Source: Planctomycetia bacterium (GTDB taxonomy: Bacteria > Planctomycetota > Planctomycetia > Gemmatales > Gemmataceae). Taken from it: a stretch of DNA of 35,594 nt. Shown piece after piece: positions 16,607-35,594 of this stretch. The stretch is taken from the NCBI GenBank assembly GCA_005799265.1, contig SYHD01000047.1, forward strand, positions 1 to 35,594. Reading direction: 5' to 3'. The notes beneath the pieces are model-generated. The model was not told the origin of the DNA. It ran no database searches and was given only the letters and a program-made list of their open reading frames with translations. Both the position numbers and the translations under genes were made by a program. Position 1 is the stretch's first letter, and each line of letters begins with the position of its first letter.

Positions 16607-17935
16607 CTATGCCAACAATTCAGTGATCGGTCCGCTGCTCTCCTTGAAAGAGCGCACCGGGCAGCCGAGCTGTTGCAGGATCGTCAGGTAGAGGTCGGAC
16701 ATCGGCTTGCGTTCTTGCTGGTAGCGGATGTGCTGGCCGTGGCGGAAGCCGAGGCGTCGGCCGCCTGCCAGCAAGGTCGGGAAGCTCTTGCCGGAATGGC
16801 TGCTGATTTGCGCGCCGCCCAACAGCAGCACGGTGTGGTCGAGCAGCGTTCCTTCCGTGGCGCGAATGTCCTTGAGCCTGTCGATCATGCGGGCGAAGAG
16901 TTCGCAGAACATCAGGTCGCGTGAGGCGATGACGCGGGCATCCGCCGAATCGGGCGCCGCCTGGCCCCCCTTGTGGTGCACGTCGTGAGCGCCGCGCACG
17001 GGAGCGCCGGCGCGCATCGCCCAGTCGCGGTATTCGTCGTAGTTCGGCCCGCCTTCGCCGCCGAGGCTGTGCGTAACGACGCGCGTCATGTCGGTCTGGA
17101 ACGCCAGGACAATCAGATCCAACATCAGCTCGATGTGCTCACGCATACTGTTGCGAGCCTCGGGCTGGACACGGACTGCCGCCTCATTGAAGCGAGGCCG
17201 ACCGCGCTGGAGGATGCGTTCGCTGTCGTTGAGCCGGCGTTCCACCTCGCGGATGGATTCGAGGTATTGATCCAGGCGACGGCGGTCCGCGGCGCCGAGC
17301 GGACGCTGAAAGTCGCGGACGCTTTCGCCGGCCGTGTCGAGAATGCTGCGATTCAGTTCGAGTCGATTTTGGGCCTCGCGGAGCTGATCGCGGTCCGCGG
17401 GCGGGAATAGGCGAGTGAAGACGTTGCGATGGTTCGACGTCGCGGGAATGTCGACGCCGAGCGAGTTGCGCGAAAGCGTCGCAGTGCCGACGCCGTCGCC
17501 GAACGAGAGGGCCAGCGACGGCAGCCAGGTGGGGCCGAGATGCCGGGCGGCGACCTGGTCCATCGAGACGGTGTTCGTGATCGTGCCTGGCGTGAGGTTG
17601 ATGTTGTGGCCCGTCAGCCAGTTGTAAGGATGCACATGCCCGCTGATGCGTCCCTGGATGTGCAGCAAATTCGTGAGCACGGTGAAGTCGTCGCGATGCC
17701 GGGCCAGCGGTTGATGCGTCGGGGCGATCGTGTAGTTGCGGCCCGTATCGCGCGGGAACCAGCCGTGCCGATCGATGGCGCCGGGGATGTAGAAGCACGC
17801 GAGGCGGCGCGGCTCGCGCTGGCCTGCCTGGGCGTGGACGGTGGAGCCTCCCATGATCTCCAGGTACGGCAGAGCCACGGTTGCTCCGAGGCCGCGCATG
17901 AAGGTACGTCGGTTGATCGGATTCTTCGGATTCAT
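16607..17935 (-). CDS. DUF1552 Tat-exported protein
   Basis: 442 residues. ATG 17935 with AGGAG six bases upstream, overlapping the preceding gene's TGA in an ATGA, so translation is coupled. Twin-arginine signal INRRTFMRGLGA (Arg9-Arg10), cleaved near VHA-QAG. The whole chain matches DUF1552, e.g. CFYIPGAIDRHGWFP, HPYNWLTGH, SILDTAGESVRDFQ and HHKGGQ. The family nearly always accompanies DUF1592-type cytochrome proteins in planctomycetes and myxobacteria. Biochemistry unknown. Probably acts in the periplasm-like space with its partner encoded just upstream. Confidence 0.95.
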   Translation of the reverse strand: MNPKNPINRRTFMRGLGATVALPYLEIMGGSTVHAQAGQREPRRLACFYIPGAIDRHGWFPRDTGRNYTIAPTHQPLARHRDDFTVLTNLLHIQGRISGHVHPYNWLTGHNINLTPGTITNTVSMDQVAARHLGPTWLPSLALSFGDGVGTATLSRNSLGVDIPATSNHRNVFTRLFPPADRDQLREAQNRLELNRSILDTAGESVRDFQRPLGAADRRRLDQYLESIREVERRLNDSERILQRGRPRFNEAAVRVQPEARNSMREHIELMLDLIVLAFQTDMTRVVTHSLGGEGGPNYDEYRDWAMRAGAPVRGAHDVHHKGGQAAPDSADARVIASRDLMFCELFARMIDRLKDIRATEGTLLDHTVLLLGGAQISSHSGKSFPTLLAGGRRLGFRHGQHIRYQQERKPMSDLYLTILQQLGCPVRSFKESSGPITELLA

Positions 17936-20553
17936 GGAGGACTCCTGCCAATGGAGGGTTGATTTTTGGGAAGCGGCTGCTGAGATTCGAGGAACGCTTG
18001 CGAGCGGACCACGGCCTTGAGCAGATCACGCAGCGGATATTCGCTGGCGCGATGTTCTTTCATGATCGCCGCGATTTCCGTGCCGTCGTCAATGCCGGGC
18101 AATCGGCCGGTTGCATAGATCACGAAGTTCTTCATGATACCGCGCACCATGTCGGTTTGATAGTCTTTCACGATGATCGATTTGAATTCCGCAAATGTCT
18201 TGAACTCCTCGCCGCGCGGCAATTGGCCGACGGTATCGACCGGCCGCGTTGTGCCGACGCCGCGCCAGGAGACGCGGCCATCGAGTTCGCCGCGGGCGTA
18301 GCTCTCGTGCTCGACCTTGCGCCAGCGGCCGCTGATGTCGAAGTTCTGAAACGCGAAACCAACGGGGTCCATGCTCTTGTGACACACGGCACATCGGGCG
18401 TCCTGCTGGTGCTGCCTGAGCAATTCGCGGAACGGCTTCCCCTTGTTCTTGCCTTCGGACGGGTTGAGTTCTGGCACTTCCAACGGCGGGGGCGGCGGAG
18501 GCTGATCGAGAATGTGGCGCAACGTCCAGGCGCCGCGGTAGATGACCCAGTTCTCGCCCATCCAGCACAGCATCGATTGAATGCCCGCGTGACCGAGAAT
18601 GCCGCCGCCGCGCGGATCATCGGGGCGAAGTTTGACTTTGCGGAGTTCGCCGCCCTCGATGCCCGAGTAGCCATAGTGAATCGCCAGGGCATCGTTCATC
18701 ATGGTCCAGTCGCTGACGATCAACTCCTTGGCGGGGCGATTTTCCTGAAAGAGCTGCGTGATGTAGGCGATGGTTTCTTCGCGCATGGACGCCTTGTAGT
18801 AGCGTGCCCACCGAAAATCCTGCATCTGAATGTAGTCCTGCGCAATCGTTATCGGCTGCTCCATTTCGAGCCATTGCATCACGAAGGGGCGCAGAAAGCC
18901 GTCGCTGCGCGGATCGGCGAGCAGGCGATCTACCTGGGCATCGAGAACGGCGGGATCACGTAATTTCCGCTGCGTGGCCAAACGGCGCAGCTCGGCGTCG
19001 GGCGGTCCGCCGGTGAGCATGAAACTGAGCCGCGAGGCAATGGCGTGCTGGGCGATCACAGCATCGGGATGCGCCGGCGACGCCTGATAGCGGAACGCGG
19101 CACTCATGAGCACCGACTGAAACGTGGCACGCAACGCATCGTCGAACGGCATGCCCTTGGCGCGAAGCTTCTCGTAGAGCTTCAGGAACGGCGCCTGTTC
19201 CGTCTCGGTCACGGGCCGACGCCACGCGCGATCGATCCAGATCGCGAGCAGTTTCTTGGCCGAGGATGCGTCATCTTTAATAGCGCTGACGTTGGCTTTC
19301 CACTCGGCGGGAGGCCAGGCGATGGTCACGTCCGGCTCGATGACGATTCGCTCCAGGACGAGGTACGGCGCCGGCTGTTTCTCCGGCGGTGTTGTCTTGC
19401 GATCGAAAAGCGGGCGGAACAAACCGGTTCCATTGGGCGGCGGATTCTTGTCCTTGGGGTTGGTCCGGTCCTCGTTCTCGTAGCCTTTGACGGCGTAGGG
19501 GATCTCGACCTTGTTGCTGAGGTGGACGCTCACGCCTTTGCTCTGCACGACCAGATCGCCAAGTTGAACTTCGTAGACCAGGCGCTCGGATGCCGACTTC
19601 CCCTCGCCCTCTGGGAGAGGGGCAAGGGGTGAGGGCACGCGGATTTCGCGGTAGTCGATGTCTTTGCCGCCGATCTTCACCCACAGGCGCGGATTGGGGA
19701 TGCCGGCCATTGGTTTCATGGCGGAGACATCCAGAGTCAGACGCAGGACCCCTTCGCGATCGAGACGAGTCGGAATGGTAAAGCTGAACGTGTCCTGCTC
19801 GCCGACGGCGCGCGGCACGATGAGCATGCCGACGCCCGGCCGACCGATGGCGATCTGGCCGGGCACCTTGGCGATCGCGCCTTGCTCTTTCCAATCGTCG
19901 AAAATTTTCTTGTAGGGATCGGGTCCTTTTTTCACGGGCTGTACGTCACGAAAATTAGCCGAGAAGATCTTCCCTTTGGTCGGCTGCAGAAAATGAATGC
20001 CCGCCACGGCGCGGCGCGTCACCTGCAGCCACTGTGCGACCGCGTCCGATGCTTCTTGCAGCGCATCGGCCCCGGTGTCGAAGCCGCCGACCGTGCCGTC
20101 CCCCGGCAACGCCTGGGCAAAGTCGATCGCCAGCCCGGTGACGTCGCGCAGCGCCGCCGACAACTCGCGCCGATTGAGCCGGCGCGTGCCGCCGGGGCCT
20201 AGCGAGCGCTGTTGCTCGGCGATCCATGTCAAGAGTCTCTTCTTGTCCGCGTCCGCCGGCTGCGGCCGGTCCTTCGGCGGCATTTCGCCAGCCAGGATTC
20301 GCTCATGCACCATCGTCCACAGGTTTCGATTGCCCGCTTGCACGCCGGTGACTTCATCGAGCCGGAGACGGGATTCTTGCTTCTTCGGTCCATGGCACAC
20401 GAAGCAATGTTCCTTGAGAAACGGCGTGACGAACTTCTGAAAGGCGGCGTCCTGGGCCGAAGCGTGGAAGGGACTCAGCAGAACGATAAGGAGCGCGCAG
20501 AATTTCCACGGGACAAAGGATGTGCATCTCGAACGGTGGTTGGGTCGTATCAT
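17932..20553 (-). CDS. PSCyt1-DUF1587/1592/1588/1585-type cytochrome protein
   Basis: 873 residues. Start ATG 20553 (MIRPNHR), because a signal segment follows (FCALLIVLLSPFHASA-Q). The open frame continues to 20928 but there it only overlaps the divergent WD40 gene. Residues about 38-110 are a PSCyt1 haem-type domain (C50-F-V-C53-H). The DUF1587, 1595, 1592, 1588 and 1585 modules follow in order. The second motif C721-A-V-C724-H (DARCAVCHKSMDPVGFAFQNFD) marks DUF1588. Oddity: residues about 305-320 (PSPLAPLPEGEGK) are the translation of a dispersed repeat inserted in frame (19600-19635). It overlaps the DUF1552 start by four bases. Proposed role: exported electron-transfer or oxidative enzyme, unproven. 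Confidence 0.93.
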   Translation of the reverse strand: MIRPNHRSRCTSFVPWKFCALLIVLLSPFHASAQDAAFQKFVTPFLKEHCFVCHGPKKQESRLRLDEVTGVQAGNRNLWTMVHERILAGEMPPKDRPQPADADKKRLLTWIAEQQRSLGPGGTRRLNRRELSAALRDVTGLAIDFAQALPGDGTVGGFDTGADALQEASDAVAQWLQVTRRAVAGIHFLQPTKGKIFSANFRDVQPVKKGPDPYKKIFDDWKEQGAIAKVPGQIAIGRPGVGMLIVPRAVGEQDTFSFTIPTRLDREGVLRLTLDVSAMKPMAGIPNPRLWVKIGGKDIDYREIRVPSPLAPLPEGEGKSASERLVYEVQLGDLVVQSKGVSVHLSNKVEIPYAVKGYENEDRTNPKDKNPPPNGTGLFRPLFDRKTTPPEKQPAPYLVLERIVIEPDVTIAWPPAEWKANVSAIKDDASSAKKLLAIWIDRAWRRPVTETEQAPFLKLYEKLRAKGMPFDDALRATFQSVLMSAAFRYQASPAHPDAVIAQHAIASRLSFMLTGGPPDAELRRLATQRKLRDPAVLDAQVDRLLADPRSDGFLRPFVMQWLEMEQPITIAQDYIQMQDFRWARYYKASMREETIAYITQLFQENRPAKELIVSDWTMMNDALAIHYGYSGIEGGELRKVKLRPDDPRGGGILGHAGIQSMLCWMGENWVIYRGAWTLRHILDQPPPPPPLEVPELNPSEGKNKGKPFRELLRQHQQDARCAVCHKSMDPVGFAFQNFDISGRWRKVEHESYARGELDGRVSWRGVGTTRPVDTVGQLPRGEEFKTFAEFKSIIVKDYQTDMVRGIMKNFVIYATGRLPGIDDGTEIAAIMKEHRASEYPLRDLLKAVVRSQAFLESQQPLPKNQPSIGRSPP
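19600..19635. repeat. Repeat element inside a coding region
   Basis: CCCCT (19600-19604) and CCCTCT (19607-19612) pair with AGAGGG (19616-19621) and AGGGG (19625-19629) around GGG. It shares the CCCTCxCCC/GGGxGAGGG pattern with the intergenic repeat at 6309-6397. On the minus strand it encodes SPLAPLPEGEG, a peptide commonly seen when such repeats are translated. It leaves the frame of the cytochrome-type protein open. Confidence 0.75.
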
Positions 20554-20640
20554 TCTTACTAACCTGCCACGCTTGGCAACTGCATGCAGATTTAGATATT
20601 TTGAATTGAACCCCGTGGCCAGCGAGAGGTTTCGTTTCCG
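20554..20640. promoter_or_regulatory. Divergent promoter region
   Basis: These 87 bases separate the divergent starts of the DUF1592-type operon (minus, 20553) and the WD40 gene (plus, 20641). It is more AT-rich than its surroundings around 20580-20605 (tgcatgcagatttagatatt). Both promoters must lie here or inside the coding edges. Exact boxes cannot be assigned. Confidence 0.5.
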
Positions 20641-21615
20641 ATGAGATCCGAGAGAAAATTCTTGGTGGGCTTGACCCTCTTCTTCGCTCTGGCGGGCATG
20701 AAGGGAATCGGTCAGCAGAAGAATCCCACCGATTTGTCGCTTATGACCCTGCACGGCCACGACAGCTGGGTCACGGCCGTCGCCTGCAGCCCCGACGGTA
20801 AACGCATCGCCTCCGGCAGCAGCGATGACCTCGTGATTCTGTGGGACGCGACCACTCGCAAGCCGCTCAAGAAGCTGAAGGTCAATAGCAAGGGCGTTAC
20901 CGCCCTCGCATTCAGCCCGGATAGCCAACGCATCGTCTCAGCCCACTGGAACAAGACCCTGAAAATCTGGGATGCCAAGAGCGGCGAAGAAGTCTTCACC
21001 CTGCGCGGCCACAAGGAAAGCGTTACGTCCGTCGCCTTCAGCCGCGACGGCAAACGCCTCGTCTCCGGCAGCGCCGACGACACCATGAAGATCTGGGACG
21101 CCGCCACGGGCAAAGAACTGCGCACCATCGACCCCGACAACGAATACGACATCAACGCCGTCGCCTTCAGCCCCGACGGCAAACGCGTGGCCTCCGGCGA
21201 CGGCGAGAACAACGTCAAGGTCTGGGACGCCGACACCGGCAAGGAGCTGGAACTCCTCGAAGGTCACGAAGCAACCGTCACGTCCGTCGCCTTTAGCCCC
21301 GATGGCAAACGCATCGTCTCCGGCAGCATGGACAACACGATTCGCATCTGGGATGCGGCGACCGGCAAGACGCTGCACACGCTCGTCGGCCACAAGGACA
21401 GCGTCGCCGCCGTCGCCATCAGCAAGAACGGCGCTCACATCGCTTCCGCCAGCGAAGATGCAACGGTGAAGATATGGAACGCTGACACCGGCAAGGAACT
21501 GGCGACACTGCGCGGGCACAAAGACGCCGTGATGTCGGTGACGTTCAGCCCGGACTGTCAGCGTGTCGTCTCGGGCAGCAAAGGCGTCCTGAAAATCTGG
21601 AACACGCCAAGGTAA
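20641..21615 (+). CDS. Exported seven-blade WD40 protein
   Basis: 324 residues. ATG 20641, with GAGAGG eleven bases upstream. Signal peptide about 1-24 (GIG-QQK). The rest is a single clean WD40 propeller of seven blades with 42-residue period: LHGHDSWVTAVACSPDGKRI, LWDATTRK, LRGHKESVTSVAFSRDGKRL, IWDAATGKEL and so on. The DNA shows a matching repeat of about 126 bases, suggesting blade duplication. The fourth blade has DPDNEYDINAVAF in place of a GH pair. Function: exported binding platform, partner unknown. It is the only plus-strand gene before 33 kb. Confidence 0.93.
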   Translation: MRSERKFLVGLTLFFALAGMKGIGQQKNPTDLSLMTLHGHDSWVTAVACSPDGKRIASGSSDDLVILWDATTRKPLKKLKVNSKGVTALAFSPDSQRIVSAHWNKTLKIWDAKSGEEVFTLRGHKESVTSVAFSRDGKRLVSGSADDTMKIWDAATGKELRTIDPDNEYDINAVAFSPDGKRVASGDGENNVKVWDADTGKELELLEGHEATVTSVAFSPDGKRIVSGSMDNTIRIWDAATGKTLHTLVGHKDSVAAVAISKNGAHIASASEDATVKIWNADTGKELATLRGHKDAVMSVTFSPDCQRVVSGSKGVLKIWNTPR

Positions 21616-21703: not shown

Positions 21704-24223
21704 TTACTTCTTGATGCCTCGCAGTTGCAGGGCGAACGGGTGCGCCGGGCTGATCTTGTCGGTCGGCAGGTCGATCGCCTTCGTCTCCAGCTTGAGCGGC
21801 TGGACAAAGCCGAGGCGCCAGTTCTCCACCTCATAAATGTTGTTGCTTGCTCGACCCATCAACAGGTAGACCTTGTCGTTCTTCGTATTGAGGAAGTGCC
21901 GGCCAAAATACGCGCCGCCGCTGTGCGAGTACATGCCGCCGGGTTCGAGTCGGCCGAAGCGGAAGCGGTCGTACATGAGCGTGTCGACGTAGAGGCCCTC
22001 GGTCGTGAAGACGAGGTAGATGCCGTTGCCGTCCATCATGCCCAGCAGGCCGTGATGCGGCGGGCTGATGTGCATGGTGGCGTAGACCTCGCCGGGCTGG
22101 GCGGCCCCGAACGCCTTGCGGCCCACGCGCCACGCGCGTTGGTAGCCCCCCTTGCCGTCGGGGACCAGGCACGTCAGCTTCCACTGAGCGCAGATTTGGC
22201 CAGCCTCGTCGAAGCGATAATCCTTGCGGGCGTCGGGCTTGTAGACGCCGGCCAGATAGAAGGCCTTGTCGGGATCGCCGGTGATGTCGGACCAGTTCCA
22301 CAGGCTGCGGCCCAGCTCGTTGCCACCGTAGAGAGGCTTGAGCTTGTCGCGTTTGACGAAGCCGGTCCAGTCATCGACGAAGATTTGCTTCCAGGCTTTG
22401 CCGTCGTAGATCGGGTTGCCGTGCTTGTCGAAGTCGCGCGGCTTGAGGCGCAGCACGTCGTTGCCGTTCTGGCGGACGTGCATGATGGAGAGGTCGTCGA
22501 GAAACGAGTCGGCCCAGTAGGTGCCGCCGGGGCCTTTGTTGTCGCCGGTGAATTCGCTGTCCTGGATTTGGCCGTCGCCGTTGGCGTCATGCCACCAGCG
22601 GCCCTTGATGGCGGTGGCGGAGAGCTTCCACTTGTCGGCGTCGAGGCGAAAGATCATCCAGCTCCCGGCCGAGCGAAACGAGCCGCCGCCGAACGCGAGG
22701 TACTTGTGCCCCTTGAGATTGATGATGCGCGGGAACAGTCGGCCGCCGGGGAACGCGACCTCCCAGTAAGCATCGACGTGCCACTTGCCCGTGTCGTAAT
22801 CGACGTGGTAGCGAATGATGCCCGGTGTGTTCAGGCTCGACACGTAGATGTGCGACGGCGACTCGGGATCGAGGCAGAAGCCGCCGGCCGCGTTTTGGCA
22901 CAGGAACCACTGGCGCAGCAGTTTGCCGTCGGCGCATGACCATTCGCTGATGCGCATCGGGCCGGCGGTCTCGGTGACGAGAATGCGGTCATGCCCGGCC
23001 TTGTCGGTCCAGCACGCGACCTTGTGGAGGCCGACGAAGATGTTCGGATCGTACGCCCCTTCGAGCTTCTGATTCTTGCCGATGCGAGCGAGCAGCTTGC
23101 CGTCGGGCGAATACTTGCAGATCTGGCGTTGGCCGGGTTCGACGATGAAGAAGTTGCCCTGCCGATCCTGATCGAGATCGCCCGCGGAGGTTTGCGAGGC
23201 GTCGAGCGGGAACAGCGTTTTCCATTCGCCGGCGGGGAGGCCGTCCTTCAGTTCGATGGCTTGCACATCCCATTTGCCCTTGTCGATCTCGTGAGTCGCG
23301 AAGAGTCTGCTGCCCTTGTCGGCGCGCGCCATGGCGATCCCGGCAGCTTTCATATTGCCGATCTCCTTCACCGTTTTCCCCGTGTTGCCGTCGAGAACGC
23401 TGACGCGCTCGGCGTAAGGCTCCGAGACGTACAGGTACGGCTTCTTGCCGACCTTGACGACGGCGAGATCGTTCGGCGCCTCGCCGGGTTTCTTCGATAG
23501 CCGTGTGACGATGCGGCCGCGATTGTCTTTTTCGGTGCCGAAGAATTTCTGCGAGGGCGAGGTGATCATGCCACCGCGCGACACCCAGGTGTGCGTGCCG
23601 TCAAAGGCGCAAAGTTGGCCGCCAGCGAAGCCGGATGAGTCGAAGCTGAAGACGACCTGGTCGATGCCGACGTCGCGATTGAGATCGACGAGAAACGGGT
23701 TGCGCCAGTTCTCGATGTAGCCGGAGTAGAAGATCGCCTTGCCGCCGTCGGCGACGCTCACCTGATAGATCGGCTCGAAGACGTGGCCGTGGATCGGCGG
23801 AAAGCGATGATCTTGCTCCCTGGGCGGCGTCCACGAATCGCCCGGCGAGGCGATGAACTTCGGGATCAGCGAATGAAACTGCCCGTTGATCTTCCATTTC
23901 TGCGCGGGCATGAAGATGCCCTTGAACGTGTATTCGCCCGGCGGCACCGGCATGAAGTTGTCGTCGAGGCCGTTCCACTCGTCGGTGAAGACGCCCTGGT
24001 TTTTGTCGTTGACGGTGCGGACCGCACCTGCGAGGAACGTGCCGACGAGCCACTTGGGGTCATCCTTCGGCGCTGCGGCCAGGGTAACACGGTAGGTCTG
24101 CTCCTTGCCGCCGTAGGGCAAGCGATAGGTGACCTTGTTGGTCTTGGGCGTGTCCGTTTGCGGCAAAGCGATGACGGTCGTCAGCAGCCATAGGGTAAAA
24201 ACCAAGCCATAACGAATGATCAT
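21704..24223 (-). CDS. Exported NHL/six-blade propeller-like protein
   Basis: 839 residues. Start at ATG 24223, because GAGGA lies six bases upstream. The ATG at 24235 has no such site, and the frame further upstream only translates a repeat. Signal peptide about 1-20 (MIIRYGLVFTLWLLTTVIAL). Residues 30-130 are a FlgD-like Ig beta domain (PPGEYTFKGIFMPAQKW). Residues about 190-800 are propeller blades (YVSEPYAERVSVLDGNTGKTV; IVEPGQRQICKYSPDGKLLARIG). A DANGDGQIQDSEF loop near 570 looks like a calcium-binding EF-hand/dockerin loop. No catalytic motif was recognised. Last gene of the run that begins with the ECF sigma factor. Its signal peptide and leader are duplicated from, or to, the adjacent HEAT gene. 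Confidence 0.85.
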   Translation of the reverse strand: MIIRYGLVFTLWLLTTVIALPQTDTPKTNKVTYRLPYGGKEQTYRVTLAAAPKDDPKWLVGTFLAGAVRTVNDKNQGVFTDEWNGLDDNFMPVPPGEYTFKGIFMPAQKWKINGQFHSLIPKFIASPGDSWTPPREQDHRFPPIHGHVFEPIYQVSVADGGKAIFYSGYIENWRNPFLVDLNRDVGIDQVVFSFDSSGFAGGQLCAFDGTHTWVSRGGMITSPSQKFFGTEKDNRGRIVTRLSKKPGEAPNDLAVVKVGKKPYLYVSEPYAERVSVLDGNTGKTVKEIGNMKAAGIAMARADKGSRLFATHEIDKGKWDVQAIELKDGLPAGEWKTLFPLDASQTSAGDLDQDRQGNFFIVEPGQRQICKYSPDGKLLARIGKNQKLEGAYDPNIFVGLHKVACWTDKAGHDRILVTETAGPMRISEWSCADGKLLRQWFLCQNAAGGFCLDPESPSHIYVSSLNTPGIIRYHVDYDTGKWHVDAYWEVAFPGGRLFPRIINLKGHKYLAFGGGSFRSAGSWMIFRLDADKWKLSATAIKGRWWHDANGDGQIQDSEFTGDNKGPGGTYWADSFLDDLSIMHVRQNGNDVLRLKPRDFDKHGNPIYDGKAWKQIFVDDWTGFVKRDKLKPLYGGNELGRSLWNWSDITGDPDKAFYLAGVYKPDARKDYRFDEAGQICAQWKLTCLVPDGKGGYQRAWRVGRKAFGAAQPGEVYATMHISPPHHGLLGMMDGNGIYLVFTTEGLYVDTLMYDRFRFGRLEPGGMYSHSGGAYFGRHFLNTKNDKVYLLMGRASNNIYEVENWRLGFVQPLKLETKAIDLPTDKISPAHPFALQLRGIKK

Positions 24224-24360
24224 GATGTTCCTCATCGGAAGAAAAACAAGCTCACGCAAAGGCGCAAAGGCGCAAAGAATTAACGCACTGACCCGCCATG
24301 ACTCTTTTCTTTGCGCCTTTGCGTGAGATCGTATTTGATAGTTTCTGCGCTCGGTTCGTC
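24168..24360. repeat. Duplicated leader, copy A
   Basis: Covers the signal-peptide codons and upstream DNA of the propeller gene and closely matches 27638-27819. It contains inverted arms of GGCGCAAA units: 24251-24277 and a shorter 24309-24327, which has lost one eight-base unit relative to copy B. The translated repeat gives LCAFAPLREL-type peptides, a well-known artefact in bacterial ORFs. Confidence 0.9.
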
Positions 24361-24385
24361 GTGCCCCTGGTAAATAGGGCCGTAG
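24361..24385. repeat. 25-base fragment of the sialate esterase gene
   Basis: Identical over 25 bases to 28106-28130 inside the sialate O-acetylesterase gene. It follows copy A of the duplicated leader directly, as a leftover of the same duplication with about 285 bases deleted in between. Confidence 0.85.
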
Positions 24386-24403
24386 CACGATCCGGCCGTA
24401 CCG

Positions 24404-30259: not shown

Positions 30260-31783
30260 TCAATTCGGCACAGGCGAGCCGTCGATCCGAAAACGCCGGC
30301 CCACGTTGCGCGGCGGATCGGCCCACATCTCCACGTTGGCGGCAATCTCGCCCGGCAACTGCAGGCGGACATCATTGCGGATGCCTTCCCATGCCGACGC
30401 GTGCCGGCACAAAATATGGTTCCAGCCTTGCTTCAACTCGATGGCCTGCTGATCGACGGGATGCGTCACCATGGGATTGTCCTTATCGATGCGATAGGCG
30501 CGCAAGCCTCGACCATTGACCCAGGCGGCGACCAACACGCCCAGCCGCGTCTTGCCATGCGGCTCCTGCCCGTAACCGTGGAATTCGATCTCGGCCGGCG
30601 AGTCCTGCGGCAGATGAATCCAGGTCGAGAAGTACGCCAGGCCGGCGCTTTTCTCCATTTGTTCGGCGGCAGGATAGGCGACCGGATCGCGGTGCAGATC
30701 GCGCCTGACCCATTTCACTTCGCTTTGGTTACCCGCGACATCCTGCGTCAGCTCTCCGTTCCATTTCGCATCCAGGTCGATCACGCCCTTGCTGCCGGGG
30801 TCCATCGGATACAAGCCGCTGCCAAAGCTCCGGGCAAACATGCTGAAGAGGAGGTTGTAATTGCGGATCTCCTTCGCTCCGATCGGCGGAATCGTCCAGT
30901 TCTCCGGCCGTTCTTTCAGGCGGGGATGTCCGAGCGGTCCGAGGGCATACCATTTCTTCAGGCGCACGCTGACCAGCCGATCCACTTTCGTCTTGGCGAA
31001 TCGCCCCGGTTCAGCAGGCACGCGCGTTCGGCCCCGGTCGCTGTCGAAGCGAACGGCCTGATTCGCCTTTACCTCGATCATCGGCGCATCGGCTGTCGGG
31101 TGCGCTTCGATCATGCCGGTGAATACGTGGACTTCGACGCTGTCATCGGCCAGCACTTGCATGCCGAATTCGGCCCCGCGCTCGACGAGCCGGCCCATGG
31201 GCGAGTCGATCGTGAAACCGCCGGCGCCCGGCCGACTCGACGCGGTCACCTTGCCGCGCGACAGCGTCATCTCGGCATCGCCGCGGATGACGACCTTGCA
31301 CGGCGCCTCCAGCACGACGCGCTCCCCCTTGGCGAACTCGACCGCGGCGACCCCCTCGATCAGTTCGAGCGTCTGACCGGCGCGCAGCCTGGCGTCCGGC
31401 CTGGCGTCGTCGGCCCAGCGGCATTCTTCCGCTGCTGTTAGCTGCGCGACCGCCGAGTGCGTCGGATGGGCACGATTGGCTTGAATCGCCACGTAGATGC
31501 CCAGCGCCACCAGGATCATGGCGGCCGTCGCCGCGAGCCAAAGCGCCAGGCGCTTCGCCCCCCACGCGTCTCGAATCGTCGCCGCCGGCGCCGGGTTGGC
31601 AAACTCGGGTGTCGCGAACGCCCACTCCAGGAGCGTGTGCATCTCGACGTGACGCCGATAGAGTTCGCGGGCCTCCGCGTGTTCCCGCAGAAGCGCGTTC
31701 AGGCGTGCGGCGTCATCAAGGGACAACTCGTCGTCCGTCAGCCTGGTCAGAAGGGGCGCGAGTTCGATTTCAACGGGGGTCAT
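30260..31783 (-). CDS. FecR-like transmembrane regulator (anti-sigma type)
   Basis: 507 residues. ATG 31783 overlaps the sigma-factor stop in ATGA. The longer frame to 31972 only shadows that gene. Residues 1-70 are a short cytoplasmic helical domain (LLTRLTDDELSLDDAARLNALL), typical of planctomycete anti-sigma/FecR partners. One transmembrane segment lies at about 78-102 (LALWLAATAAMILVALGIYV). The FecR domain (about 115-260) is extracytoplasmic (VEFAKGERVVLEAPCKVVIRGD; GRLVERGAEFGMQV). The C-terminal half (about 290-507) is beta-rich, perhaps a LamG/jelly-roll sugar-binding part. Likely role: senses an outside ligand and controls the ECF factor. This is inferred from pairing, not seen. Confidence 0.85.
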   Translation of the reverse strand: MTPVEIELAPLLTRLTDDELSLDDAARLNALLREHAEARELYRRHVEMHTLLEWAFATPEFANPAPAATIRDAWGAKRLALWLAATAAMILVALGIYVAIQANRAHPTHSAVAQLTAAEECRWADDARPDARLRAGQTLELIEGVAAVEFAKGERVVLEAPCKVVIRGDAEMTLSRGKVTASSRPGAGGFTIDSPMGRLVERGAEFGMQVLADDSVEVHVFTGMIEAHPTADAPMIEVKANQAVRFDSDRGRTRVPAEPGRFAKTKVDRLVSVRLKKWYALGPLGHPRLKERPENWTIPPIGAKEIRNYNLLFSMFARSFGSGLYPMDPGSKGVIDLDAKWNGELTQDVAGNQSEVKWVRRDLHRDPVAYPAAEQMEKSAGLAYFSTWIHLPQDSPAEIEFHGYGQEPHGKTRLGVLVAAWVNGRGLRAYRIDKDNPMVTHPVDQQAIELKQGWNHILCRHASAWEGIRNDVRLQLPGEIAANVEMWADPPRNVGRRFRIDGSPVPN

Positions 31784-32310
31784 GACATGCCTCCCTCCGC
31801 CTGAAGCCGGCGGCGAACGCACTCCGCCAGAGCTTGACGGATGCGGTAAAGCGAAGTGGCGACCGAGGCAGCGGTTCGATGCAAGATGTCCGCGACCACG
31901 CGGACCTTCTTGTCCTCGCGATAGCGCTCTTCCACAAGACGTCGGTCGGACGCCGACAGTCGATCGAGGCATTCACTCAAGGCCCGCAACGCCGCGTCAT
32001 CTTCCGAAACGTCGCCGCCGCTCTCCTGTGCGAGCTGGGCCAGCAGTGCGTCGTCGAAGAGCAGCTTGTCGCGCTGGCAGGCTTTGCGATGCGCGAGAAC
32101 CTGATAATAGGCGTGCCGCGCCGCCCACGCGCCAAAGTCGCGCACGCCGGCAAATTCCTCCTCTTTCTGCAGCAGCAAGAGGTTGGTCTTCTGCAGGACA
32201 TCCTTCGCCTCATCGGTGCGCGGCAACAGCTTCAGGATGTAGGCGTACAGCGAACGCTGGCATCCCATCAAGGCACCGAGGAACGCAACGTGACTTTGGT
32301 CTGCGGACAT
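31780..32310 (-). CDS. ECF RNA polymerase sigma factor (Rhodopirellula/Verrucomicrobium type)
   Basis: 176 residues. ATG 32310, with GGGAG eight bases upstream. Region sigma-2 spans about 10-75 (YAYILKLLPRTDEAKDVLQKTNLLLLQKEEEF, then FGAWAARHAYYQVLAHRK), and sigma-4 about 110-165 (LDRLSASDRRLVEERYREDKKVRVVADILHRTAASVATSLYRIRQAL, the helix-turn-helix). Lengths and wording match the short planctomycete/verrucomicrobial group. The partner is the FecR-like gene immediately downstream. The pair probably switches on the downstream esterase/HEAT/propeller genes. Its own leader can fold over the ribosome site. Confidence 0.93.
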   Translation of the reverse strand: MSADQSHVAFLGALMGCQRSLYAYILKLLPRTDEAKDVLQKTNLLLLQKEEEFAGVRDFGAWAARHAYYQVLAHRKACQRDKLLFDDALLAQLAQESGGDVSEDDAALRALSECLDRLSASDRRLVEERYREDKKVRVVADILHRTAASVATSLYRIRQALAECVRRRLQAEGGMS

Positions 32311-33668: not shown

Positions 33669-33704
33669 ATTGAATATTCAGTCGTACAACAAGGAGATAT
33701 TTTC

Positions 33705-34673
33705 ATGTATCGTCGATTCGCAATCACCTTGGCCGGTCTCGTGGCCATTTCCGCTGCCCTCGGCCAGGACAACCCTTTGCAGAAGGCGCTCAAGGATGTC
33801 GATGTGCAAGGGGAGTGGATCTACAACGACCTCCCCAAGGGGTATGCCGAGGCGAAGAAGACCGGCAAGCCGATGCTGGTCGTGTTTCGCTGAGTGCCGT
33901 GACTGGGCTGCAAAAGCCTGGACGGGCAGGTTGCTCGTCGTGACCCTCAGATTACCGAATTGCTCGACAAATTCGTGTGCGTGCGGCTCATCCAGGCCAA
34001 CGGCATGGATCTTTCGTTGTTCCAGTTTGATTATCGCCTGACCTGGGCGGCTTTTTTCATGAACGCCGACCGCGTCATCTATGGTCGTTATGGAACCCGC
34101 GCAGACCACAAGAGCCAACGCGGGGCGCCGGAGTCGGCTCAAAACGTCTCACTCGACGGCATGAAAAAAGCGCTCGAAGCCGCCCTGGATCTGCACAAGA
34201 ATTATCCCGCCAACAAAGAAATGCTGGCAGGCAACATCGGCCCGGCCCCGAAATACAAGGCCCCGGAGGAGTTTCCGAGCCTGGCCAAGAAATTCAAGGC
34301 GACCATCGAACCCAATGGCCGCGGCTGCATCCATTGCCACACGGTGAACTCGGCCCAGGCCAAGTTCAACCCCAAGGACGATCGCTGGTTGTTTCCTTAT
34401 CCCATGCCTGAAACGATCGGGCTGGCCCTGGATCGCAAGGAGAGGGCGAAGATCAAGTCGGTGCTGGCCAATTCGCAGGCCGAGAAGGACGGCTTCAGGG
34501 CGGGGGATGAGCTGCTGACCCTGCGAGGCCAACCGCTCTTGTCCATCGCCGACGTGCAGTGGGTCTTACACAATGCGAAAGATTCCGGCATCCTGGACGC
34601 CGTCGTGTTGCGTGATGGCGCCAAGGTCGATCTGAGGCTCCAGCTTCAGGCCGGCTGGAGAAAGTTGAAATAG
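33705..34673 (+). CDS. Putative UxxU selenoprotein: thioredoxin-like, CxxCH and PDZ
   Basis: 322 residues if both in-frame TGA codons are read as selenocysteine. ATG 33705 with AAGGAG eight bases upstream. Signal peptide about 1-20 (ALG-QDN). Residues about 35-160 are thioredoxin-like: GKPMLVVFR leads into Sec63-Val-Pro-Sec66-Leu-Gly-Cys69, where relatives have CxxC. TGA1 is 33891-33893 and TGA2 is 33900-33902. No other stop occurs and both halves share one frame. C208-I-H-C211-H is a haem-type or zinc motif. Residues about 240-322 are a PDZ domain (AEKDGFRAGDELLTLRG). A hairpin at 33921-33939 has an AGGUU loop. Likely role: exported thiol/selenol oxidoreductase handling peptides or methionine/disulfide damage, inferred. 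Alternative: pseudogene or sequencing errors at exactly two Cys codons. I judge that unlikely. Confidence 0.85.
33921..33939 (+). promoter_or_regulatory. Candidate bacterial SECIS hairpin
   Basis: GACGGGC (33921-33927) pairs with GCTCGTC (33933-33939), seven pairs with one G-U, around the loop AGGTT. The loop starts 34 bases after TGA1 and 25 after TGA2, within the usual distance for SelB recognition. The loop has the GG(U) pattern of the E. coli formate dehydrogenase element. An earlier weaker hairpin (33903-33921, loop GCAAA) overlaps it by one base. Confidence 0.65.
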
Positions 34674-34715: not shown

Positions 34716-35594
34716 ATGATCAAGGCCCGAATGCTGACGTCCGTTGTCGCTCTGCTGTGGTTGTCGAGCACAGCTGTTTTCGCCTGCCCGGAATGCGAAA
34801 AGCTGGCCAAGGCCGGTCTGCAAGCCAGCGGTACCGGCACACGCTGGTCCGATCCGGCCACCTGGGCCGGCGGCAAGCTGCCCCAGGCCGGGCAGGCGGT
34901 CGTCATCCCCGAAGGCAAGAGCGTCATTCTCGATGTCAGCCCGCCGCAACTGAAGAGCATCCTCATCAAGGGGCAACTCCGCTTCGATCGGAAAGACATC
35001 GCTCTGAACGTGGGCTGGATTCTCATCGTCGGCAAAAATTCGCTCCTGGAAATCGGCAGCGAAACCGACCCCTTCAAGCACAAGGCCGTCATCACGTTCT
35101 TCGGCGCCGATGCCAAGGAAAACGTCATCGGCGACGCGCAGCTCGCTGCTGGGACCAAATTTCTCTGTGCGATGGAAGGCGGTCGTTTGGAGCTTCACGG
35201 CAGCCGACGTGACGCCGTGAGCTGGACCCAACTTGAGGCCCACGCCGAGGTGGGCGCCCGGCAGATCACCCTCAAGGATGAAGTGGCGTGGACGGCCGGC
35301 GATCGGATTTGCATCGCCCCTAGCGGTTATGACCCCCTCGAAGCCGAGCTCGTCACCGTCACCGAAGTCACCGGGAAGGTCGTGAAGTTCGAGCCCGGGC
35401 TGAAATACAAGCACTGGGGCACGTTGCAAAAGATTCAGGACCGCTTCCTGGATGAACGCGCCGAGGTCGGGCTGTTGACGCGCAACATCGTGCTGCAAGG
35501 CTCTGACGAATCGATCAAGTCCGGCTTCGGCGGCCACGTCATGATCATGCCCGGCGGCACGGCTCACGTTGAGGGCATCGAGTTCTTCCGCATG
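34716..35594 (+). CDS. G8-domain secreted protein, N-terminal part
   Basis: Frame open from ATG 34716 (GGAG seven bases upstream) to the window edge, 293 residues visible, no stop. Signal peptide about 1-23 (TAVFA-CPEC). The cysteine after VFA could be a lipobox cysteine (V-F-A-C) or half of a CPEC pair. Residues about 40-150 fit a G8 domain (RWSDPATWAGGKLPQAGQAVV, then VILDVSPPQLKSILIKG, VGKNSLLEIGSE), followed by beta-helix-like repeats (GGHVMIMPGGTAHVEGIEFF). G8 proteins of this type (CEMIP/TMEM2-like) act on or bind extracellular carbohydrate. Follows the selenoprotein after 42 bases, likely the same transcript. Confidence 0.88.
   Translation, partial: MIKARMLTSVVALLWLSSTAVFACPECEKLAKAGLQASGTGTRWSDPATWAGGKLPQAGQAVVIPEGKSVILDVSPPQLKSILIKGQLRFDRKDIALNVGWILIVGKNSLLEIGSETDPFKHKAVITFFGADAKENVIGDAQLAAGTKFLCAMEGGRLELHGSRRDAVSWTQLEAHAEVGARQITLKDEVAWTAGDRICIAPSGYDPLEAELVTVTEVTGKVVKFEPGLKYKHWGTLQKIQDRFLDERAEVGLLTRNIVLQGSDESIKSGFGGHVMIMPGGTAHVEGIEFFRM

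What the first reader, a model, noticed from the sequence alone, without database searches (positions are those of the whole stretch)
33705..34673. Two in-frame TGA codons replace both cysteines of a thioredoxin CxxC (UxxU selenoprotein)
Seen: the frame from ATG 33705 to 34673 is open except for TGA at 33891-33893 and 33900-33902. They stand at residues 63 and 66, after GKPMLVVFR and in the U-x-P-U spacing of a redox CxPC, with Cys69 three further on. Both flanks are good protein in the same frame: signal peptide before, thioredoxin-fold, CxxCH and PDZ after. Two independent stop mutations at exactly the two active-site codons are very unlikely in a decaying gene. Inference: a diselenol/diselenide active site, which would be very rare.
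Basis: partly seen in the sequence, partly recalled or inferred. Interest (0 to 1): 0.95.

Follow-up and report, generated by a model that had tools for sequence, protein, structure and literature searches.

The report
Two-UGA diselenide thioredoxin with twin hairpins
This planctomycete gene has UGA stop codons in place of both active-site cysteines of a thioredoxin-like protein, both are predicted to be read as selenocysteine, and it and most relatives with the same double UGA carry an extra RNA hairpin after them that likely helps the ribosome read two such codons in a row.

Summary
Confirmed: the frame 33705-34673 is open except for TGA at 33891 and 33900, at the two Cys codons of a thioredoxin CxPC. 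The protein passes the NCBIfam cut-off for trx7_PDZ_seleno (NF041199), listed in reviews as CxxU with one Sec. The genome encodes tRNA-Sec, SelA, SelB and SelD, plus three full-length CxxU paralogues. The double TGA is no local oddity: 58 of 67 pattern hits in public genomes and all 63 fetched multi-TGA members from other planctomycetes are UxxU; no UxxC form occurs among 225 distinct members. Downstream lies a covarying SECIS-type hairpin B (7 bp, loop AGGUU), paired in 91% of UxxU and 85% of CxxU cells but 16% in CxxC genes. New: between the second UGA and B, UxxU genes add a hairpin A (86% of 104, against 15% of 75 CxxU and 7% of 45 CxxC), which follows UxxU/CxxU changes on the tree (about 10.6 of 14 independent pairs, median p 0.006). 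A's loop mostly sits 16 nt after UGA1. I read this as a double-selenocysteine (diselenide) redox centre decoded with the help of two hairpins. Sec insertion, diselenide formation and the role of A are untested.

The parts
33705..34673 (+). Trx7/PDZ selenoprotein gene (322 aa; TGA63 and TGA66 read as Sec by inference)
   Evidence: NF041199 313 bits against cut-off 300
33891..33893 (+). UGA1, codon 63, first Cys of the thioredoxin CxPC in homologues
33900..33902 (+). UGA2, codon 66, second Cys of CxPC in homologues
33905..33919 (+). Hairpin A: stem GGGCU/AGCCU, loop GCAAA; apical loop begins 16 nt after UGA1; feature of most UxxU genes
   Evidence: -7.0 kcal/mol, z -2.43
33921..33939 (+). Hairpin B, SECIS-type: stem GACGGGC/GCUCGUC, loop AGGUU; loop 25 nt after UGA2, 34 nt after UGA1
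   Evidence: -10.2 kcal/mol, z -4.30; covariation; fits the printed bSECIS model
33816..34064 (+). Thioredoxin_7 domain (residues 38-120)
34326..34340 (+). CxxCH (CIHCH, residues 208-212), possible haem c attachment site
   Evidence: in 158 of 160 rows; the 2 without it are truncated rows
34434..34643 (+). single PDZ-like domain (residues 244-313)
33690..33695 (+). AAGGAG, likely ribosome-binding site upstream of ATG 33705
   Evidence: read directly

Best explanation
The gene encodes a thioredoxin-fold/PDZ protein, predicted to be exported, in which both active-site codons are UGA and are predicted to be read as selenocysteine, likely giving a U-V-P-U diselenol/diselenide redox centre. Shown: the two TGA codons at the two Cys positions, the Sec genes in the genome, a covarying SECIS-type hairpin B 25 nt after UGA2 in Sec-type but not Cys-type genes, and an added hairpin A that goes with the second UGA. 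Inferred: SelB bound at hairpin B delivers Sec-tRNA at UGA2; hairpin A, whose loop mostly lies 16 nt after UGA1, serves UGA1, either as that codon's own SECIS or by folding away the spacer so that B comes within reach. The exported protein would cycle between diselenol and diselenide (or mixed Se-S with Cys69) to reduce or isomerise extracytoplasmic disulfides; the conserved CxxCH may bind haem c as electron partner, and the PDZ-like domain would bind client C-termini.
For: Frame and TGA positions; NF041199 equivalog above cut-off with TGA scored as Cys; tRNA-Sec 71.8 bits and ARAGORN tRNA-SeC, selB 364 bits joined, selA 569 bits, selD 289 bits; three full-length paralogues with one TGA each, all CxxU. 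UxxU in 58 of 67 pattern hits, and in 105 of 225 distinct contexts with CxxU 75, CxxC 45, UxxC 0. Hairpin B: 91% of pair cells standard in 104 UxxU and 85% in 75 CxxU genes, 16% in 45 CxxC; re-dealt 3' letters never reach the observed value in UxxU or CxxU (0 of 500 each), in CxxC 488 of 500 do; all 7 pairs have double changes in UxxU; partners slid by 1-3 nt give 27-51% in UxxU. Hairpin A: MFE <= -3 in 86/15/7% of UxxU/CxxU/CxxC; mean z against synonymous codons -2.02/0.01/-0.66; re-dealing 3' halves lowers pairing in UxxU (0 of 500 reach the observed) but not in CxxU (197 of 500); on the tree 10.6 of 14 independent pairs agree, 0.7 disagree; spacer GC is 57% in both UxxU and CxxU. A (>= 4 bp) and B (>= 5 bp) stand together in the minimum fold in 78 of 98 UxxU, 24 of 75 CxxU, 0 of 46 CxxC. 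Model: residues 63-66 lie between strand 57-61 and helix 67-77, the thioredoxin active-site place.
Against: No protein or selenium data. 14 of 98 UxxU genes lack hairpin A by the MFE rule and 11 of 75 CxxU genes pass it, among them the window genome's own paralogue L022 (-4.3); by the looser 4-bp count 27 of 75 CxxU genes have an A-like stem. Only 35% of UxxU genes beat the synonymous null one by one at p < 0.05. In 25 of 84 UxxU genes with A its loop lies 13-15 nt after UGA1, under the printed minimum of 16; A alone misses the printed energy limit of -7.5 kcal/mol (window -7.0). Folding 60 nt that include both UGAs gives another minimum in which B is not intact, although a ribosome would hold that stretch open. 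B alone lies within 16-37 nt of both UGAs, so A need not be a SECIS. The p of the tree test ranges from 0.0005 to 0.065 over random pairings. The tRNA-Sec model also passes its cut-off in 5 of 14 control genomes, so that hit rests on ARAGORN too. The active-site block of the model has pLDDT only 67-71 (residues 61-80). Haem binding, PDZ ligand and direction of electron flow are untested.
Confidence: 0.82

Rival explanations
1. One SECIS (hairpin B) serves both UGAs, and hairpin A is not a second SECIS: it shortens the path to B, slows the ribosome or keeps the release factor away at UGA1. (Not exclusive with the UxxU reading; it differs in what A does.)
For: B's loop lies 25 nt from UGA2 and 34 nt from UGA1, both inside the printed 16-37 nt range; A's commonest loops (GCA, GCAA, GCC) lack the AGGUU of B; 14 of 98 UxxU genes do without A.
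Against: A's loop has G in its first two positions in 86% and begins 16 nt after UGA1 in 56 of 84, as the bSECIS model asks; A tracks the second UGA across the tree.
Confidence: 0.45
2. Decaying gene: the two TGA are true stops and the downstream part is a pseudogene or starts at an internal codon.
For: The window copy is shorter than most relatives (260 residues from site 1 to the stop against a UxxU median of 367).
Against: 105 distinct contexts share exactly these two TGA; Sec genes are present; hairpin B covaries; the sister L284 has the same short form (264); third-position excess.
Confidence: 0.02
3. UGA is read as another amino acid (recoded genome or read-through by a near-cognate tRNA) rather than Sec.
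For: Only UGA is affected.
Against: tRNA-Sec with anticodon TCA and selA, selB, selD are present; the two TGA fall on positions that are Cys in 119 of 119 listed homologues; SECIS-type hairpin B in UGA genes only. Other TGA-ended genes of the genome were not counted.
Confidence: 0.03
4. Hairpin A is a by-product of the protein sequence or of base composition in UxxU genes.
For: A contains the Cys69 codon at a fixed place in most genes, and UxxU genes share ancestry.
Against: Synonymous-codon null, equal spacer GC, Cys69 about as common in CxxU genes (69 of 75 against 91 of 105), re-dealt halves, independent tree pairs.
Confidence: 0.08

Closest known systems
NCBIfam NF041199 trx7_PDZ_seleno (in reviews 'PDZ domain-containing protein, Thioredoxin_7, CxxU' and 'Trx7/PDZ domain-containing protein, CxxU, 1 Sec'; passages read in PMC9312934, and PMC13188914; probably the 'putative secreted serine protease MucD' of PMC2398784, passages read)
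   Same: Same family by curated cut-off; Sec at the second active-site position; a SECIS-type hairpin after it.
   Different: Listed as CxxU with one Sec; here UxxU with two, an added hairpin A, and a single PDZ-like domain (profile 2-278 of 390). That the 2008 'MucD' entry is this family is inferred from the shared motif and citation, not shown.
UxxU Prx-like / SelL selenoproteins with a diselenide bond (Shchedrina et al. 2007: only the title seen, in a reference list; content recalled)
   Same: Two Sec in a UxxU redox motif; precedent for a diselenide.
   Different: Peroxiredoxin-like domain (listed as pfam00578, or near pfam04592), not Thioredoxin_7; haem motif or PDZ not known to me there (recalled).
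UxxU metal-binding protein NF041115, listed with 2 Sec in PMC13188914
   Same: Two Sec in UxxU.
   Different: Unrelated 74-position metal-binding model; in 392 planctomycete genomes no match passed its cut-off and no UxxU case was confirmed.
Bacterial SECIS model (PMC13188914, Fig. 2 legend)
   Same: Hairpin B meets loop size, stem, G position, spacing and energy.
   Different: The model as printed describes one hairpin after one UGA; two serial hairpins after two UGAs 9 nt apart are not described in the passages read.

Membership tests
NF041199 trx7_PDZ_seleno | whole-protein score above the curated cut-off (300 bits) | tested here: met
   313 bits with TGA scored as Cys; in the six-frame genome search 296 bits, just under
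NF041199 trx7_PDZ_seleno | Thioredoxin_7 domain with CxPC-type site | tested here: met
NF041199 trx7_PDZ_seleno | full profile length including a second PDZ | tested here: not met
   profile 2-278 of 390; the short form is shared with sister L284
NF041199 trx7_PDZ_seleno | Sec codon at the second active-site position (listed as CxxU) | tested here: met
   TGA at codon 66; TGA also at codon 63
bacterial SECIS (model of PMC13188914), hairpin B | 3-9 nt loop, 4-16 bp stem, G in first two loop positions, 16-37 nt from UGA, MFE <= -7.5 | tested here: met
   AGGUU (GGU where A-U pairs), 7-8 bp, 25 and 34 nt, -10.2 kcal/mol
bacterial SECIS (model of PMC13188914), hairpin A for UGA1 | same rules | tested here: inconclusive
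   window: loop GCAAA, 5 bp, G first, 16 nt from UGA1; -7.0 kcal/mol misses -7.5
Sec-encoding organism | selA, selB, selC, selD in the genome | tested here: met
diselenide redox protein | Se-Se bond between the two Sec | not testable with these tools
   needs purified protein
c-type cytochrome | haem covalently bound at CxxCH | not testable with these tools
   motif conserved, Cytochrom_C only E 0.17, two PF01578 assembly-type proteins in the genome

The most novel reading that the evidence does not exclude
Bacteria that place two Sec codons nine nucleotides apart have evolved a tandem SECIS: hairpin A is UGA1's own element and hairpin B is UGA2's, gained and lost together with the second UGA many times, so that one ribosome is served twice within four codons to make a diselenide active site.
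Probability: 0.4. Interest if true: 0.87.

Novelty: new variant of a known kind. Interest (0 to 1): 0.74.

Why it matters
How a bacterial ribosome decodes two UGA codons three residues apart is an open question as far as I could find, since the printed SECIS model pairs one hairpin with one UGA. This family offers natural pairs of genes that differ in just that trait (UxxU against CxxU), with a candidate RNA part that goes with it, so the question becomes directly testable. It also shows that UxxU, listed for only a few families in the reviews read, is a common state of a planctomycete and poribacterial protein family whose genes ordinary annotation would cut at the first UGA.

Tried and rejected
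Rfam scan of the window at gathering cut-offs: no match. UxxU pattern in viral contigs: 0 stretches. A second UxxU family as a control for hairpin A: NF041115 in 392 planctomycete genomes gave no match over cut-off; the 9 TGA-containing places among the rows listed were fetched and showed a single-Sec MTUxxC-like motif in 2 (L318, L321); UxxU-like strings appeared only on the strand opposite the match (L315, L319, L321), so no UxxU case was confirmed, and whether A occurs in other UxxU families stays open. Foldseek with the whole model is dominated by PDZ-bearing proteases; the thioredoxin part surfaced only in the second look (3f9u). The sequence search of solved structures gave PDZ-bearing proteins in the 60 of 72 rows shown. 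Pseudogene and recoded-code readings rejected for the reasons given above. Direction of evolution (UxxU first or Cys first) left open: the trees are unrooted, the first (7 changes) rested on UxxU rows picked by pattern, and many forks are weakly supported. Paper searches listed no paper on serial SECIS hairpins in bacteria that I could recognise from title and abstract; only open-licence PMC papers are held. The deep-Sep paper (PMC12013277) has none of the terms UxxU, PDZ, Planctomycet or Poribacteria in its main text. Passages of the Porphyra planctomycete genome paper (PMC4807772) name other selenoproteins; its table of candidates is a supplement that I did not see.

Rows dropped before counts: 9 of 67 pattern hits as not family members by the local HMM; those 9 and 4 fragments before the first tree; 6 short rows before the second; identical contexts counted once. 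Protein rows in the first tree were every fourth of the 119 usable ones. Of the non-own rows listed, sequence was looked at for 32 of 32 with one TGA and 63 of 66 with two or more (G244, G459, G465 not fetched).

Full report
OBSERVATION. The frame 33705-34673 translates to 322 residues with exactly two internal stops, TGA at codons 63 and 66. An AAGGAG lies upstream of the ATG (read). All 119 listed homologues other than the window's own fragment read RC[IV]PCxxC at this place, and C63, P65, C66, C69 and CIHCH (208-212) are invariant in a 44-row alignment. The protein passes the curated cut-off of NCBIfam NF041199, trx7_PDZ_seleno (313 bits against 300, TGA scored as Cys), a family whose name already says '(seleno)protein'. 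In two reviews its motif is given as CxxU, with one Sec in the 2026 one (passages read: PMC9312934; PMC13188914). A 2008 metagenome paper reports a CxxU 'putative secreted serine protease MucD', which is likely the same family (passages read: PMC2398784; the identity is inferred).

THE GENOME CAN MAKE SEC. In the window's own assembly (6.47 Mb, 372 contigs, 87% complete) there are tRNA-Sec (71.8 bits, over cut-off; ARAGORN agrees, anticodon TCA), selB, selA and selD, all over cut-off. In the 14 control genomes the cut-offs are passed in 5, 2, 1 and 2, so the tRNA model is the least specific of the four. Three further family members are full length with one TGA each; all three are CxxU.

HOW COMMON UxxU IS. 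One degenerate pattern (GKP..FR-TGA-NNNNNN-TGA type) scanned over genomes of 84,980 species gave 67 stretches; 58 of 67 are family members by a local HMM, in records titled Planctomycetota, Poribacteria, Verrucomicrobia, Abditibacteriales, Armatimonadetes and others. The other 9 look like chance, about what I expected from the pattern's information content (my estimate, no call). Viral contigs gave none. As a sample not chosen by that pattern, NF041199 was searched in 392 planctomycete genomes: 123 had a match at E <= 1e-60, and 150 matches are listed (the list is cut there): counted from the listing, 48 have no stop, 35 one TGA (3 own) and 67 two or more (1 own). Of the non-own rows all 32 with one TGA are CxxU, and all 63 fetched of 66 with two or more are UxxU. 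Over everything aligned, 225 distinct contexts are UxxU 105, CxxU 75, CxxC 45, UxxC 0; this total is enriched in UxxU by the pattern.

TREE. In a 219-row tree (quick, LG+G4) the window gene is sister to L137 (= L284, a groundwater planctomycete, UxxU; SH-aLRT 98; 64% identity over 271 columns). The three states need 24 changes; starred branches alone force at least 17 for the UxxU label and 15 for the CxxU label. Sec has thus come or gone at position 63 many times. An earlier 160-row tree with fewer planctomycete CxxU genes needed 7 changes. The window gene and its sister both end after the first PDZ-like domain (260 and 264 residues from site 1 to the stop, UxxU median 367).

HAIRPIN B. Starting 18 nt after UGA2 there is a 7-bp stem with loop AGGUU (window 33921-33939, -10.2 kcal/mol, z -4.30). 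In 104 UxxU genes 91% of pair cells are standard, in 75 CxxU genes 85%, in 45 CxxC genes 16%. In UxxU all seven pairs show changes on both sides (five in CxxU); sliding the 3' partner by 1-3 nt drops pairing to 27-51% in UxxU; re-dealt 3' letters never reach the observed value in UxxU or CxxU. It meets the printed bacterial SECIS rules (3-9 nt loop, 4-16 bp, G in the first two loop positions, 16-37 nt from UGA, MFE <= -7.5; PMC13188914 Fig. 2 legend): 25 nt from UGA2 and 34 nt from UGA1.

HAIRPIN A. In UxxU genes the 18 nt between UGA2 and B also fold (window 33905-33919, -7.0 kcal/mol, z -2.43). MFE <= -3 holds in 86% of 104 UxxU, 15% of 75 CxxU and 7% of 45 CxxC genes (Mann-Whitney UxxU against CxxU p 5.5e-19, relatedness ignored); against random synonymous codons the mean z is -2.02, 0.01 and -0.66, and 35%, 1% and 7% of genes pass p < 0.05 one by one. 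A run of four or more pairs occurs in 81% of 98 UxxU genes; re-dealing the 3' halves among them gives 44% (0 of 500 as high), while in CxxU re-dealing changes nothing (40% against 38.5%, 197 of 500). Along the following 252 nt, apart from the stretch that holds B, no 18-nt stretch has MFE <= -3 in more than 48% of UxxU genes or shows a like contrast with CxxU; spacer GC is 57% in both groups. To allow for relatedness: on starred branches there are 14 independent pairs of UxxU and CxxU rows; hairpin A goes with UxxU in 10.6 on average, against in 0.7, no difference in 2.6; median p 0.006, range 0.0005-0.065. One UxxU gene nested among CxxU genes (L059) has lost Cys69 yet has a 4-bp hairpin A. 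The loop of A begins 16 nt after UGA1 in 56 of 84 genes (13-15 nt in 25, 17 nt in 3), hence a median of only 7 nt after UGA2, with G in its first two positions in 86%. Against this: 14 of 98 UxxU genes lack A by the rule, among them the verrucomicrobial branch L123, L155, L174; 11 of 75 CxxU genes pass it, among them the own paralogue L022 at -4.3.

NOVELTY. UxxU sites are listed for other families, and a diselenide is in the title of a 2007 paper on another family; this family is listed as CxxU. The UxxU form and the serial hairpins were not in the passages read, nor recognisable in the listings of searches of open-licence papers. I rate it a new variant of a known kind.

Noticed in passing
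L061 (G008:C332): UxxU member with a shorter stretch after the motif (FHULTUGCSFD), so that hairpin B is shifted by one codon; short form with one PDZ-like domain.
   Followed up: partly
L063/L132 and L064/L166: UxxU members in two assemblies titled Gemmatales; in L063 the frame breaks 112 residues after site 1, possibly a decaying copy; L064 is cut by the contig end.
   Followed up: no
L124: One 8-kb stretch holds both a UxxU and a CxxC copy of the family; the CxxC copy is sister to a UxxU gene (L261) on the tree.
   Followed up: no
L318, L321: Metal-binding (HMA-like) domains in planctomycetes with TGA at the first Cys of a CxxC (MTUASC, MTUGGC): likely further single-Sec proteins.
   Followed up: no
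window 34716-35594: Next gene downstream carries a G8 domain (PF10162) and runs off the window; 42 nt separate it from the selenoprotein gene, same strand.
   Followed up: no
window 17932-20928: Minus-strand gene with DUF1592/DUF1588/DUF1585 and planctomycete cytochrome C (PSCyt1) domains.
   Followed up: no
L123, L155, L174, L175: Verrucomicrobial UxxU branch (FRUAPUxNGRxFD) that has lost Cys69 and lacks hairpin A.
   Followed up: partly
window 21704-24388 and 30260-31972: Long minus-strand open frames (894 and 570 aa) without any Pfam match at E <= 0.001.
   Followed up: no
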